Part shown: piece after piece, positions 12,201-28,248 of the stretch
How the letters are laid out: each line of letters begins with the position of its first letter
Numbering within the stretch: position 1 is the stretch's first letter
Source of the DNA: a virus
DNA length: 64,000 bases
Virus record (IMG/VR): IMGVR_UViG_3300032246_000761
Location: 1-64,000 of that record
Direction: 5' to 3' (one strand)
Notes under the pieces: model-generated
Databases searched by the model: none
Seen by the model: only the letters and a program-made list of their open reading frames with translations
Told to the model about the DNA's origin: nothing
Position numbers and translations under genes: made by a program

Positions 12201-12229
12201 TTGACAAACAACCTACATTATGATACATT
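12201..12229 (+). promoter_or_regulatory. possible sigma70-like promoter TTGACA-N17-TACATT
   Basis: A perfect TTGACA at 12201-12206; at 17 bases spacing the -10 would be TACATT (12224-12229), which is weak. A TATGAT at 12219 is too close. The ATG of the peroxiredoxin gene is 9 bases after the -10, as in the other leaderless-type promoters. Confidence 0.45.
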
Positions 12230-12238
12230 GGATATATT

Positions 12239-12883
12239 ATGGTTAAAATAAATGATACAGCACCAAATTTTGTAGCCCACACATCACAAGGATTGGTAGA
12301 TTTTTATAGTTATATAGATAATAGTTGGGCAATATTATTCTCGCATCCAAAAGCATTTACGCCTGTTTGTACTACTGAATTAGGCACATTACAGAAATTA
12401 CTTCCAGCATTTAAAGACAGAAATGTAAAAGTAATAGGTTTATCAGTTGACAGTCCAGATAATCATAACGTTTGGTTAAATGATATAAAAGAAACACAAG
12501 GGTATTTACCTGAATATCCTTTAATTACAGATACAGATAAAATAATATCTAAATTATATGATATGATACATGAGAATGCTAGTGATACAATGACAGTAAG
12601 AACAGTATTCATTATTGGTCCAGATAAAAAGATTAAACTTAAAATGGATTACCCTGCTAGTGCTGGTAGAAATTTTGACGAGATATTGAGAGTAGTTGAT
12701 TCATTACAATTAACTGCTAATTACAAAGTAGCAACACCAGCAAATTGGGTACAAGGTGAAGATGTTATTATTAGTGCGGCTATTAATGATGAAGAAGCAA
12801 AGAAATTATTTCCTCAAGGCTGGACAACACATAAACCATATTTAAGAACACTAAAAGATCCTACACAAGAAACTAATGCCTAA
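12239..12883 (+). CDS. 1-Cys peroxiredoxin (Prx6-like)
   Basis: 214 residues, typical of the Prx6 subfamily. The peroxidatic site is HPKAFTPVCTTELG with Cys44 and Thr41. The C-terminal extension of about 60 residues (containing NWVQGEDVII and PYLRTLKDP) is characteristic of Prx6/AhpC-like long peroxiredoxins. It reduces H2O2 and organic peroxides and would protect the infected cell, and perhaps the oxygen-sensitive Fe-S enzymes encoded later, from oxidation. A resolving cysteine is not apparent. The next gene overlaps its end. Confidence 0.88.
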   Translation: MVKINDTAPNFVAHTSQGLVDFYSYIDNSWAILFSHPKAFTPVCTTELGTLQKLLPAFKDRNVKVIGLSVDSPDNHNVWLNDIKETQGYLPEYPLITDTDKIISKLYDMIHENASDTMTVRTVFIIGPDKKIKLKMDYPASAGRNFDEILRVVDSLQLTANYKVATPANWVQGEDVIISAAINDEEAKKLFPQGWTTHKPYLRTLKDPTQETNA

Positions 12884-13571
12884 AGAATTTAAATTTTTAA
12901 AAGTTGACGCTAGTGTTTTACCTAATACAAAAGGTAAAAATATAGATGGTATAAGATTTTACGAGATAGATGGTAAGTCATATCCATCAGTTACTTCAGT
13001 ATTATCTTTACTTAAAAAAGATTCATTACAAGAGTGGAGAAACAAAGTTGGTGAATCAGTTGCCAATTGGGAAATGGGTAGAGCTGCTAGACGTGGTAAA
13101 GCAATGCACACTTTAGTTGAACAATATTTACAAAATCAAACACCATCAGTTAGAGATGTATTACCATTAGGTTTATTTAAACTGATTAGACCTTATGTAG
13201 ATCAAATCGATAACATAAAAATGTTAGAGACTATTATGTACAGTAAAAAATTAACACTTGCTGGACAGGTAGATTGTATTGCTGAATATAATGGTAAATT
13301 ATCAGTAATAGATTTCAAATCTGCCAATAAACAAAGAGAAGAAGGTTGGATTGAAAATTACTTCTTACAAACAACAGCCTATTCTATGATGTATGAAGAA
13401 TTATATGGAGAAAAAGTAGAACAGCTGGTTATTATATTAGCTTGTGAAGATGGTGTTGCTCAGACATTTATTAAAAATAGAGCAGATTACGAAAAGAAAT
13501 TAATAGAGTCAGTTGACAATTTCTATAAATATTTCAACGATAAACAGAATTTGACGTTGAAGAATAGTTAA
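12876..13571 (+). CDS. PD-(D/E)XK exonuclease (Cas4/RecB/MGME1-like)
   Basis: 231 residues. The fold motifs appear in order: RGKAMH (73-78) with the motif-I histidine, E118, D133 in AGQVD, D146-F-K148 in VIDFKSA, and the motif QTTAY starting at Q165. This is the arrangement of RecB-like single-strand exonucleases. It probably works in phage recombination, replication or host DNA breakdown. It overlaps the peroxiredoxin stop and is followed within a few bases by the tmRNA gene. Confidence 0.8.
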   Translation: MPKEFKFLKVDASVLPNTKGKNIDGIRFYEIDGKSYPSVTSVLSLLKKDSLQEWRNKVGESVANWEMGRAARRGKAMHTLVEQYLQNQTPSVRDVLPLGLFKLIRPYVDQIDNIKMLETIMYSKKLTLAGQVDCIAEYNGKLSVIDFKSANKQREEGWIENYFLQTTAYSMMYEELYGEKVEQLVIILACEDGVAQTFIKNRADYEKKLIESVDNFYKYFNDKQNLTLKNS

Positions 13572-13572
13572 T

Positions 13573-13790
13573 AATTAGTTAGGACCAGGGGGCGGTACCC
13601 TGCCACTCCACCATTTATAGAATGAAATATAGGGGGTGGAAATAGAATCGACTACTAAGTAAACCTATTTGGAGTTAAATCGCTGATAGCGTACTATCAA
13701 ATCATAGATGCTAACGAAAGTTACGCTCTTGCTGCCTAGTAATAGGTAACGGCGTTGGCCTACACGTGGCAACAGAAGTAGGCCGCTTGA
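13573..13790 (+). ncRNA. ssrA: circularly permuted two-piece tmRNA (ssrA)
   Basis: The acceptor half comes first. It has a T-arm CAGGG-GGCGGTA-CCCTG (13586-13602), the 3' acceptor strand CCACTCC (13603-13609) and an encoded ACCA (13610-13613). After a 19-base spacer the 5' half begins with GGGGTGG (13633-13639), which pairs with that strand over 7 bp. CTACTAA (13652-13658) pairs with TTAGTTAG (13575-13582) as helix P2. The tag reading frame starts at 13710 after CATAGAT and reads A-N-E-S-Y-A-L-A-A, then TAG at 13737-13739. A 7-bp helix, GGCCTAC with GTAGGCC (13757-13784), follows as a pseudoknot-type element. The order and T-loop match alphaproteobacterial permuted tmRNAs. It would rescue stalled ribosomes and tag products for proteolysis. 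The exact ends are estimates. Confidence 0.92.
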
Positions 13791-13815
13791 CAAATCAATC
13801 AAATTAGTATATAAT
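13787..13815 (+). promoter_or_regulatory. consensus sigma70 promoter TTGACA-N17-TATAAT
   Basis: Perfect boxes (13787-13792 and 13810-13815) with a 17-base spacer, overlapping the 3' edge of the tmRNA gene and driving the small membrane protein gene at 13847. Confidence 0.85.
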
Positions 13816-15083: not shown

Positions 15084-15692
15084 ATGTATGGAGGATTTGA
15101 AGTATTTAAAATATATTTGGCAGTTAAACTTCATTTCACTACAGATAGTTATGACTACCATAAATATGAAGGAAAAGTTAATTGTAAGTTAGAAACTTTT
15201 ACTAAAAGAAATGACCGATATTTTTTTCATAAACTTAGCACCAGATATAATAAAGATGATATATTGGAGTTTTTTGTTAGCAATTTTCTTACTGATAGTA
15301 ATAAGTGGGTAAAAAGTTTAACAGAACAGGATGGTAAAGATGTTTATACAGATTGGAAAAAACGTAATGAATCTTTTGATTACTATTTTAGAAGTGATTG
15401 TATATCTATTTTTAATGATTTTACTAACAAGCATCTTTCTTTTGATGATGGTTTTAACTCTTTTGGTGGGCAGCATCCTAGATTTTTTCAATTGGTTTTA
15501 TCAAAAAAGATATCTTATGAAACTGCTATTGTTTTTAACCACATTTTATCATATAGCAAACGTTGGGATAAAGAAATTACTGAACAAGTGGTTTGGCCTA
15601 TACACTCCAAAAGGCTAGAAAAATATACACAGTTTGTTAAGTATAATCCAACAACTGTAAAATTAATAATGAAAGAAGTATTTGTAAAATGA
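15084..15692 (+). CDS. 59: gp59-like DNA helicase loader
   Basis: 202 residues against 217 in T4. The N-terminal block with FEVFKIYLAVKLH, then RNDRYFFHKLSTRYNKDDI and FVSNFL, lines up with T4 gp59 (VYKLYLMIKQH, RRDKYFFQKLSEKYKLKEL, FISNLV). gp59 loads the replicative helicase gp41 on gp32-coated forked DNA and so coordinates leading and lagging strands. Its partner gp32 is encoded at 17847. It is translated with gp33 from the promoter at 14835. Confidence 0.75.
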   Translation: MYGGFEVFKIYLAVKLHFTTDSYDYHKYEGKVNCKLETFTKRNDRYFFHKLSTRYNKDDILEFFVSNFLTDSNKWVKSLTEQDGKDVYTDWKKRNESFDYYFRSDCISIFNDFTNKHLSFDDGFNSFGGQHPRFFQLVLSKKISYETAIVFNHILSYSKRWDKEITEQVVWPIHSKRLEKYTQFVKYNPTTVKLIMKEVFVK

Positions 15693-17846: not shown

Positions 17847-18743
17847 ATGGACTTTAATACATTAAAAACTAGTCATTCTAACTTTGATAAACTTACCAAA
17901 GCACTAGAAGCTAACCTCAATCCTGAGGACGTTAACAAACAATCAAAAGACAAATACGCTGACGACAGAATATGGAAACCTGAACTAGATAAAACTGGTA
18001 GTGGTTATGCCGTTATTCGTTTCTTACCTGCTTCTGAAAAAGAGGAAATGCCATGGGTAAGAGTTTGGTCTCATGCTTTCCAAGATAAAGGTGGTTGGTA
18101 TATCGAGAACTCATTAACAACTCTTAATCAAAAAGATCCTGTTAGTGAAGAAAACACTAGACTATGGAATTCAGGTGTTGAATCTGATAAAGAAATAGCA
18201 AGAAAAAGAAAAAGAAAATTATCTTATTTCTCTAACATATTAGTTGTTAGTGATCCTGCTCATCCAGCAAACGAAGGTAAAGTATTCATATTCAAATTCG
18301 GTAAAAAGATATTTGATAAGATTACAGAAGCAATGCAACCAGCATTTGAAGATGAACAACCAATTAACCCATTTGATTTTTGGAAAGGAGCAAACTTTAA
18401 ACTGAAAATCAGAAAAGTGGATGGTTATTGGAACTATGACAAGTCTGAATTTGAGACTGTTAAAGCAATTGCTGATAATGACGAAAGTATTAAAGCAATT
18501 TGGTCTAAACAGTACCCTCTAACACCTTTCTTGGCCCCTAGTAATTTTAAGACCTATGATGAACTCAAAGAGAAACTGAATAGGGTAATTACGGGAACTA
18601 GAAATACCTCAACTGTTGAAAGTACTGAACTCCCTCCAGTAAAGTCTAACGGTGCGGTAAAAAGTAATGGTAAAACTACTACAGCTGCTAGTGATGATGA
18701 CGATACGTTGTCTTACTTTAGTAAATTGGCAGATGACGAGTAG
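17847..18743 (+). CDS. 32: single-stranded DNA-binding protein gp32
   Basis: 298 residues against 301 in T4. The OB-fold core shows KRKLSYFSNILVVSDPAHP and NEGKVFIFKFGKKIFDKI, matching T4 gp32 closely, and the C-terminus is acidic (a run of Asp, then LADDE) as needed for partner binding. It coats ssDNA at the fork and in recombination. The zinc-binding Cys/His residues of T4 gp32 (about residues 64-90) are missing; the corresponding region contains DPVSEENTRLW and no cysteine. GGAG precedes the ATG, and a strong terminator follows. Confidence 0.93.
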   Translation: MDFNTLKTSHSNFDKLTKALEANLNPEDVNKQSKDKYADDRIWKPELDKTGSGYAVIRFLPASEKEEMPWVRVWSHAFQDKGGWYIENSLTTLNQKDPVSEENTRLWNSGVESDKEIARKRKRKLSYFSNILVVSDPAHPANEGKVFIFKFGKKIFDKITEAMQPAFEDEQPINPFDFWKGANFKLKIRKVDGYWNYDKSEFETVKAIADNDESIKAIWSKQYPLTPFLAPSNFKTYDELKEKLNRVITGTRNTSTVESTELPPVKSNGAVKSNGKTTTAASDDDDTLSYFSKLADDE

Positions 18744-27264: not shown

Positions 27265-28248
27265 ATGTATAACGAAAACTTTATGGGTCTATCCGGCTTC
27301 GTCTGGTTCGTGGGCGTTGTAGAAGATCGTCAAGATCCACTCAAAGCAGGCCGTGTTCGAGTAAGAGCATTGGGTCATCATACAGATCATTTAGATTTAT
27401 TACCTACGGCCGATTTACCTTGGGCCAATGTTATGTTACCTATAACGGCCAGCGGTGTATCTGGGATTGGCCAGTCGGCGACCGGACTACTCGAAGGAAG
27501 TTGGGTGTTAGGATATTTTAGAGATGGTGATAGAAGGCAAGAACCGGTTATATTAGGTAGTTTACCAGGAAGGCCTACTCAAGCAGCAAATAACCCACAG
27601 GGCTCAAATAAAGGATTTTCTGATCCAAACGGGGTTTACCCAAAATATATAAATGAACCAGATGTTAATCGTCTGGCCGTTAACAATGGTGAGAAACCAC
27701 ATCCAAGTCTGGCCACAGATGCGGATACAAGGGTTACAGGAATACAGGCCTATAACTCGGAATGGGATCAGCCGGCCAGTACCTACGGAGCAATCTATCC
27801 ATACAATCAAGTATACGAAAGCGAATCAGGTCATATCGTAGAGTTTGATGATACGCCAGATGCGGAAAGAATCCACATCCGCCATAGATCCGGTACTCGC
27901 CTTGAAATCACGGCCAATGGCGACCAACTGGCCATTACCAAAGGCGACAACTATATAATCATAGATGGTAACAATAAGGTCTATATCAAAGGCAACTCCG
28001 ATATCACTGTACAAGGCAATGCTAATGTAAAGGCCGGAGGGGAGGCCAATGTTCTGGCCAATACCATCAACGCAACGGCCAATACCAATATCAATATGAC
28101 GGCCTCTAATGTCAATGTAACAGGCAACGTATTAATTAATGGAACGTTGGACGTGATGCAAAACGTTAGCTTAGAGGCCGATCTATTAGTACAAGGCGAC
28201 ACATCACTAGAAGGCGAGAATACAATACACGGTTACGATAAACCATAG
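27265..28248 (+). CDS. 5: baseplate hub/spike protein gp5 without lysozyme domain
   Basis: 327 residues. Residues about 8-110 form the OB-fold of gp5/gpV (GVVEDRQDPLKAGRVRVRALG, LPWANVMLPI, GSWVLGYFRDGDRRQEPVILG). Residues about 180-325 give the triple-stranded beta-helix needle with short repeats (GDNYIIIDGNNKVYIKGN, then INATANTNINM). The lysozyme domain of T4 gp5 is absent, as in many other myoviruses. It forms the membrane-piercing spike below the hub. Its base composition is unlike its neighbours: GC is visibly higher and GGCC occurs 18 times in 984 bases by my count. Confidence 0.88.
   Translation: MYNENFMGLSGFVWFVGVVEDRQDPLKAGRVRVRALGHHTDHLDLLPTADLPWANVMLPITASGVSGIGQSATGLLEGSWVLGYFRDGDRRQEPVILGSLPGRPTQAANNPQGSNKGFSDPNGVYPKYINEPDVNRLAVNNGEKPHPSLATDADTRVTGIQAYNSEWDQPASTYGAIYPYNQVYESESGHIVEFDDTPDAERIHIRHRSGTRLEITANGDQLAITKGDNYIIIDGNNKVYIKGNSDITVQGNANVKAGGEANVLANTINATANTNINMTASNVNVTGNVLINGTLDVMQNVSLEADLLVQGDTSLEGENTIHGYDKP

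What the first reader, a model, noticed from the sequence alone, without database searches (positions are those of the whole stretch)
13573..13790. Permuted, two-piece tmRNA encoded by a T4-like phage
Seen: acceptor half with T-arm and ACCA placed before the 5' half, a 7-bp acceptor stem and a P2 helix formed between the halves, a resume codon at 13710 and tag A-N-E-S-Y-A-L-A-A. Known: this permuted order, with a GGCRGUA-type T-loop, is characteristic of alphaproteobacterial ssrA as I recall it. Inference: the gene came from the host lineage and supports an alphaproteobacterial host. It may rescue ribosomes during host mRNA decay, or its tag may compete with that of the host.
Basis: partly seen in the sequence, partly recalled or inferred. 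Interest (0 to 1): 0.85.

Follow-up and report, generated by a model that had tools for sequence, protein, structure and literature searches.

The report
SAR11-type split tmRNA in T4-like phage
A T4-like phage, probably infecting SAR11-type ocean or lake bacteria, carries a complete, intact-looking copy of the bacterial RNA that rescues stalled ribosomes; it has the host's own degradation tag, and close relatives of this gene are already known in such phages.

Summary
A permuted, two-piece-type tmRNA gene lies at 13550-13786 (+): Rfam alpha_tmRNA 105 bits, E 1e-27; ARAGORN tag ANESYALAA. Both acceptor strands, the G3-U70 pair, T-arm, ACCA, P2 pairing and a resume codon at 13710 are present. 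Across 11 phage relatives 97.8% of pair cells pair, and 15 of 37 pairs change on both sides. The phage (69-kb partial IMG/VR record) is T4-like and closest to Pelagibacter phage Mosig, whose annotated tmRNA lies between the same exonuclease and gp59 genes. The tag is letter for letter the dominant SAR11 tag. Trees place the viral tmRNAs with SAR11, apart from other alphaproteobacteria (100/100), as one viral clade. Such phage tmRNAs are published (Mosig, Melnitz), so this is a new member of a known kind. Tag competition is weakened because the tags are identical; I infer that it supplements the host's SmpB-dependent rescue. Three less ordinary facts emerged: the tmRNA is a discrete cassette, present in about a third of relatives; two relatives have the whole tRNA-like domain replaced as one ~75-bp block with G3-U70 kept; one has a LAGLIDADG endonuclease gene in the intervening sequence between the halves.

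The parts
13550..13613 (+). acceptor piece of the tmRNA (3' part of the tRNA-like domain, first in the gene), ending in encoded ACCA (13610-13613)
   Evidence: cmscan RF01849/RF04321; left homology breakpoint at 13549/13550 against relatives without tmRNA
13586..13602 (+). T-arm, stem CAGGG/CCCUG, loop GGCGGUA
   Evidence: sequence
13603..13609 (+). acceptor stem, 3' strand CCACUCC
   Evidence: pairs 7 of 7 with 13633-13639 including G3-U70
13614..13632 (+). intervening sequence, 19 nt, predicted to be removed in processing
   Evidence: processing itself not tested
13633..13786 (+). 5'/coding piece: acceptor 5' strand GGGGUGG (13633-13639), D-like loop, P2 strands, tag frame, 3' hairpin 13757-13784
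   Evidence: cmscan, cofold, pair counts
13563..13582 (+). P2 5' strands AAUAG and UAG-U-UAG, pairing with CUAUU (13665-13669) and CUACUA (13652-13657)
   Evidence: helices 2 and 3: changes on both sides at 3 of 5 and 3 of 6 pairs
13553..13559 (+). closing helix GACGUUG, pairing with CGGCGUU (13750-13756)
   Evidence: cofold; 94.8% of cells paired but no two-sided changes
13710..13745 (+). tag reading frame GCU AAC GAA AGU UAC GCU CUU GCU GCC = ANESYALAA, then TAG TAA TAG
   Evidence: ARAGORN; identical to the dominant SAR11 tag
13787..13815 (+). perfect sigma-70-type promoter match TTGACA-17-TATAAT directly downstream; right edge of the tmRNA cassette, would drive downstream genes
   Evidence: 12 of 12 match; homology to relatives without tmRNA resumes at 13787
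12876..13571 (+). T4-type exonuclease, PD-(D/E)XK superfamily, directly upstream; its 3' end overlaps the start of the tmRNA block
   Evidence: phrog_298 3.9e-64, PF12705; 62% identical to the gene in the same place in Mosig
12201..12229 (+). promoter-like site (10 of 12) upstream of the peroxiredoxin-exonuclease-tmRNA run; possible source of the tmRNA transcript
   Evidence: weak, consensus match only
15084..15692 (+). gp59 helicase loader, syntenic marker of the T4-like neighbourhood
   Evidence: PF08993/PF08994; 58% identical to Mosig
17847..18743 (+). gp32 single-strand DNA-binding protein, T4-like marker
   Evidence: PF08804, phrog_224

Best explanation
The locus is a functional phage-borne ssrA gene of the permuted alphaproteobacterial type, taken long ago from the SAR11 lineage and kept in part of a group of T4-like pelagimyophages. 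One transcript, probably read through from the exonuclease operon, is folded and cut by the host's tRNA-processing enzymes into an acceptor piece and a coding piece held together by P2 and the acceptor stem. Host alanyl-tRNA synthetase charges it through G3-U70, host SmpB carries it to stalled ribosomes, and the nascent chain receives the same ANESYALAA tag that the host uses, so host proteases can read it. The net effect is extra ribosome-rescue capacity while phage and host nucleases produce broken mRNAs. Shown: gene anatomy, conserved pairing, identity of the tag, kinship with SAR11, absence of smpB in this record. Inferred: transcription, processing, charging, and benefit to the phage.
For: Covariance-model and ARAGORN matches. 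G3-U70 in every parsed sequence: 58 viral, 136 SAR11, 21 other alphaproteobacterial. Pairs conserved through two-sided changes on 11 relatives. Tag ANESYALAA in 18 of 20 relatives that ARAGORN found through the exonuclease, a search blind to the tag, and dominant in SAR11; other alphaproteobacteria sampled have ANDN... tags. Viral tmRNAs one clade at 100/100, joined with SAR11 at 100/100. Same neighbourhood as annotated tmRNAs in Mosig and Melnitz. No SmpB gene in the record, so host SmpB would be needed.
Against: No RNA data. No strong promoter directly upstream. The gene is missing from about two thirds of close relatives, so it is dispensable. The host already has the same RNA, so the benefit is not obvious. 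G000 is a partial record (69 kb), so a phage smpB elsewhere is not excluded.
Confidence: 0.72

Rival explanations
1. The gene is selfish or neutral cargo: a small, structured cassette that spreads through the phages' module-exchange sites and is maintained because it is harmless, without helping the phage much.
For: Sharp replacement edges: relatives without tmRNA match up to 13549 and again from 13787, with other small genes between. Present in 24 of 72 usable relatives. One relative holds a homing-endonuclease-like gene inside it.
Against: Cargo without function would lose pairing, G3-U70 and the tag frame; all are kept, even where the whole tRNA-like domain was exchanged.
Confidence: 0.15
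2. It works as a regulator or decoy: it draws off host SmpB or alanine and so dampens or redirects host trans-translation, as proposed for tag-less tmRNA fragments such as that of mycobacteriophage DS6A.
For: Phage DS6A carries little more than the tRNA-like domain, and a similar molecule inhibits tmRNA (PMC4131195, PMC11915505). A phage copy would add to the host pool.
Against: Here the full tag frame and stop codons are kept and identical to the host's, which a decoy would not need.
Confidence: 0.08
3. The tag differs in use from the host's and marks proteins for a phage purpose (competition of tags, or tagging host proteins for recycling, as suggested for Melnitz).
For: Proposed for Melnitz without a test (PMC9004378). 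Mosig (GEDNFALAA) and Melnitz (ANDNYVPVDYALAA) do have tags unlike SAR11's.
Against: The tag here is identical to the dominant SAR11 tag.
Confidence: 0.05

Closest known systems
tmRNA (SsrA) of Pelagibacter phage Mosig EXVC030M (MT647606.1, Mosig_00148)
   Same: Permuted tmRNA in a T4-like phage (Kyanoviridae), after the PD-(D/E)XK exonuclease and before gp59 and gp32; exonuclease 62% and gp59 58% identical to the window's.
   Different: Tag GEDNFALAA instead of ANESYALAA; 44-nt intervening sequence instead of 19; T-loop UGCAACU; annotated gp33 follows in Mosig, while the small ORFs here show no match to it.
tmRNA of Methylophilales phages Melnitz (MZ577097.1 and kin)
   Same: Permuted alphaproteobacterial-type tmRNA in the same gene neighbourhood; described in PMC9004378.
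   Different: Host OM43, not SAR11; tag ANDNYVPVDYALAA; 142-nt intervening sequence.
SAR11 (Pelagibacterales) chromosomal ssrA
   Same: Permuted order, G3-U70, T-loop of GGCRGUA type, tag ANESYALAA.
   Different: SAR11 acceptor pairs 5-6 are G-C, U-A in 136 of 136; the window has U-A, G-C. Alpha model 225-230 bits in three intact SAR11 genes, 105 in the phage. The exact 32-nt T-arm/acceptor stretch is in none of the genome contigs held.
Mycobacteriophage (Bxz1 group) and Bacillus phage G tmRNAs
   Same: Complete tmRNA genes on phages (PMC4131195).
   Different: From memory these are the ordinary one-piece form from other phyla; not compared here.

Membership tests
permuted (two-piece) tmRNA, RF04321 / alpha_tmRNA RF01849 | scores over the curated cut-off of the covariance model | tested here: met
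   105.2 bits (cut-off 50) and 91.5 bits (cut-off 47)
permuted (two-piece) tmRNA, RF04321 / alpha_tmRNA RF01849 | acceptor half encoded before the coding half, separated by an intervening sequence | tested here: met
   13550-13613, 19-nt gap, 13633-13786
permuted (two-piece) tmRNA, RF04321 / alpha_tmRNA RF01849 | alanine identity: G3-U70, A73, CCA end | tested here: met
   G3-U70 and ACCA encoded; charging itself not testable
permuted (two-piece) tmRNA, RF04321 / alpha_tmRNA RF01849 | open tag frame beginning with a resume codon and ending in a degron such as ALAA, then stop | tested here: met
   ANESYALAA plus three stops
permuted (two-piece) tmRNA, RF04321 / alpha_tmRNA RF01849 | P2 and acceptor helices between the halves conserved | tested here: met
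   two-sided changes in P2, T-stem and acceptor stem; 95-100% of cells paired
permuted (two-piece) tmRNA, RF04321 / alpha_tmRNA RF01849 | transcript is cut into two RNAs | not testable with these tools
   needs RNA ends from infected cells
permuted (two-piece) tmRNA, RF04321 / alpha_tmRNA RF01849 | works with SmpB in trans-translation | not testable with these tools
   no smpB in the 69-kb record; host SmpB assumed
pelagimyophage ssrA (Mosig/Melnitz type) | same gene neighbourhood in a T4-like phage | tested here: met
   exonuclease - tmRNA - gp59 - gp32
pelagimyophage ssrA (Mosig/Melnitz type) | one lineage of tmRNA, related to SAR11 | tested here: met
   viral rows one clade, with SAR11, 100/100 (without Mosig and Melnitz); Mosig and Melnitz fall in the viral set at 97/95 but on long branches
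pelagimyophage ssrA (Mosig/Melnitz type) | glutamine riboswitch linked to the tmRNA (described for Melnitz) | tested here: not met
   no riboswitch over the gathering score in the window; PMC9004378 calls it common but not defining, so this does not exclude membership

The most novel reading that the evidence does not exclude
In these phages the permuted gene order makes the whole tRNA-like domain, both acceptor strands included, one contiguous block of about 75 bp. Short recombination tracts can then replace the tRNA-like domain without breaking its pairing (L322, L327 against the window), and the discarded spacer between the halves can house a homing-endonuclease gene (L218). Permuted tmRNA would then be an exchangeable, parasitised module in T4-like pelagimyophages.
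Probability: 0.35. Interest if true: 0.6.

Novelty: new member of a known kind. Interest (0 to 1): 0.42.

Why it matters
It adds a well-supported phage tmRNA whose tag equals the host's, which argues that such phages supplement host ribosome rescue rather than redirect it. It shows that the gene is a cassette gained and lost between nearly identical phages, so pairs with and without it exist in nature for a direct test. It is also a host clue for a partial viral genome, with the caution that Melnitz breaks the simple link between tmRNA type and host.

Tried and rejected
Chance structure: rejected. Recent capture from the host: the exact 32-nt T-arm/acceptor stretch is in no genome contig, and the viral sequences form one clade. 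Whether the viral clade lies inside SAR11 or beside it could not be settled (AU p 0.38). Origin from another alphaproteobacterial order: rejected by tag and tree. gp33 right after the tmRNA, as in Mosig: the two candidate small ORFs show no match. Phage smpB or clpP in the record: none found. Late promoter TATAAATA at 13524: lies inside codons of the exonuclease, and such sites are fewer than chance in the window, so not claimed. Further copies of the homing-endonuclease gene of L218: none in viral contigs. Donor of the exchanged tRNA-like domain of L322/L327: not found outside these two contigs.

Full report
What is there. The window holds a complete permuted tmRNA gene on the + strand. Rfam's alphaproteobacterial model matches 13509-13787 with 105.2 bits (E 1.1e-27), and the general permuted model gives 91.5 bits. 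ARAGORN calls it independently, with tag ANESYALAA. The acceptor piece (13550-13613, ending ACCA) comes first, then 19 nt of intervening sequence, then the coding piece (13633-13786). The acceptor stem GGGGUGG/CCACUCC pairs 7 of 7 with G3-U70; the T-loop is GGCGGUA. Folding the two pieces together gives the acceptor stem, T-stem and terminal hairpin and a closing helix 13553-13559/13750-13756; P2 is taken from the covariance-model alignment.

Is it more than chance? Yes. On 11 related phage sequences from the same site, 97.8% of pair cells form a standard pair (shuffled mean 88.8%; slid structures 30-50%), and 15 of 37 pairs show changes on both sides (shuffled mean 6.9, none of 500 shuffles as high). 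Some of these changes are not independent, because two of the rows received their tRNA-like domain as one block (see below).

Whose genome. G000 is a partial 69,098-bp IMG/VR record. The window has gp59, gp32, T4-type tail tube, baseplate wedge, exonuclease and other T4-like genes. Three protein searches put Pelagibacter phage Mosig first, with 37% (tail protein), 58% (gp59) and 62% (exonuclease) identity. In Mosig and in Melnitz an annotated tmRNA lies after the exonuclease and upstream of gp59 and gp32.

Origin. The tag ANESYALAA is the dominant tag in SAR11 genomes. The set was itself found with a tag pattern, but loci fetched by DNA similarity to the phage tmRNA also mostly carry ANESYALAA or near variants. 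Other alphaproteobacteria sampled have tags beginning ANDN. In a tree of 47 tmRNAs the viral sequences form one clade (100/100) that joins SAR11, apart from other alphaproteobacteria (100/100); whether they nest inside SAR11 is not decided (AU p 0.38). An earlier tree with Mosig and Melnitz agrees, but those two rows are on long branches. SAR11 acceptor pairs 5-6 are G-C, U-A in 136 of 136, while the window has U-A, G-C. The simplest reading is an old acquisition from the SAR11 lineage followed by life in phages.

Cassette. Starting from the exonuclease, without regard to tmRNA, I fetched 80 viral loci. Of 72 with enough downstream sequence (546 nt or less was taken as too short), 24 have a tmRNA: 20 by ARAGORN, three more by cmscan (L322, L327, L352) and L218 by eye. 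The remaining loci gave no hit over the cut-off. In seven relatives without it, homology runs to 13544-13549 (exactly 13549 in six) and resumes at 13787, which is the first base of a perfect TTGACA-17-TATAAT promoter. Between these edges the relatives carry other small genes, for example a frame beginning MIERLKDLI, and in L330 also a longer gene. So the unit gained or lost is the tmRNA gene itself.

Two unusual kinds of relative. L322 is 98-100% identical to the window in most 20-base bins on both sides, but 13578-13655, the contiguous tRNA-like domain, is only about 65% identical. Its acceptor stem is GGGCCAG/CUGGUCC, fully paired, with G3-U70 kept. L327 has the same domain. In a permuted gene both acceptor strands lie side by side, so one short recombination tract can replace the domain whole. 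L218 has a 463-nt intervening sequence with a 132-codon frame that matches LAGLIDADG_3 (E 9.3e-10, over the curated cut-off) and, weakly, I-MsoI and I-CreI. L352 has the same acceptor half and the same start of the intervening sequence without the frame, which makes the frame look like an insertion into the spacer hairpin. I found no second copy, so L218 rests on one metagenomic contig. The tmRNA database paper reports such endonuclease genes in tmRNA group I introns, a tRNA gene in one permuted spacer and a repeat in another (PMC11915505); in the passages I read it does not report an endonuclease gene in a permuted spacer.

How it most likely works. By its anatomy it should be transcribed, cut in two by host tRNA enzymes, charged with alanine, and used with host SmpB to free stalled ribosomes; no smpB or clpP was found in the record. 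The identical tag means that host proteases would read it as their own. T4-like phages degrade host DNA and RNA early in infection (established knowledge of T4), so extra rescue capacity is a plausible benefit. None of the steps from transcription on was tested here.

Known or new. Two-piece tmRNAs in pelagimyophages were described with Melnitz; that paper counts 53 two-piece structures among 133 phage tmRNA structures and 17 tmRNA carriers among 47 Melnitz-like contigs (PMC9004378). This case is a new member of that kind. The exchanged tRNA-like domain and the endonuclease gene in the spacer are, as far as this search shows, not described, but each rests on one or two contigs.

Noticed in passing
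L218:2250-2712: 463-nt intervening sequence of a permuted phage tmRNA encodes a 132-aa LAGLIDADG-type protein (2309-2707); L352 looks like the counterpart without it. The ends of the spacer can form a long helix that reaches into the acceptor 5' strand (duplex -33 kcal/mol).
   Followed up: partly
L322:1683-1934 and L327:1387-1637: tRNA-like domain exchanged as one ~75-bp block in phages otherwise nearly identical to the window; G3-U70 and full pairing kept; ARAGORN misses both.
   Followed up: partly
L014:788-1161: A contig with the window's exact 32-nt T-arm/acceptor stretch but a different remainder and a 24-residue predicted tag (ANKRFVSEVTIPANFLVGSELVAA), next to a frame resembling a cold-shock protein.
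   Followed up: no
L352:1180-1445: Phage tmRNA whose tag reads ANEQFALAA, the same as in two Pelagibacterales-order genomes (L150, L151): phage tags may follow host subclades.
   Followed up: no
window:13787-13815: Perfect sigma-70-type promoter exactly at the right edge of the cassette; L337 carries further copies of this promoter region nearby, suggesting that it is a recombination edge.
   Followed up: partly
window:12239-12883: Peroxiredoxin gene (AhpC-TSA plus 1-cysPrx_C) directly upstream of the exonuclease, unusual phage cargo.
   Followed up: no
window:16766-17539: Non-specific DNA/RNA endonuclease (Endonuclease_NS, E 1.1e-49) near the tmRNA; could itself produce broken mRNAs.
   Followed up: no
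L330:4824 onward: A longer gene of roughly 900 bp, rhodanese-like by eye (not searched), stands at the tmRNA site in a relative.
   Followed up: no
L028:11454-11661 and 27575-27628: Mosig has a manA RNA and a glutamine riboswitch; the window shows neither over the cut-off.
   Followed up: no
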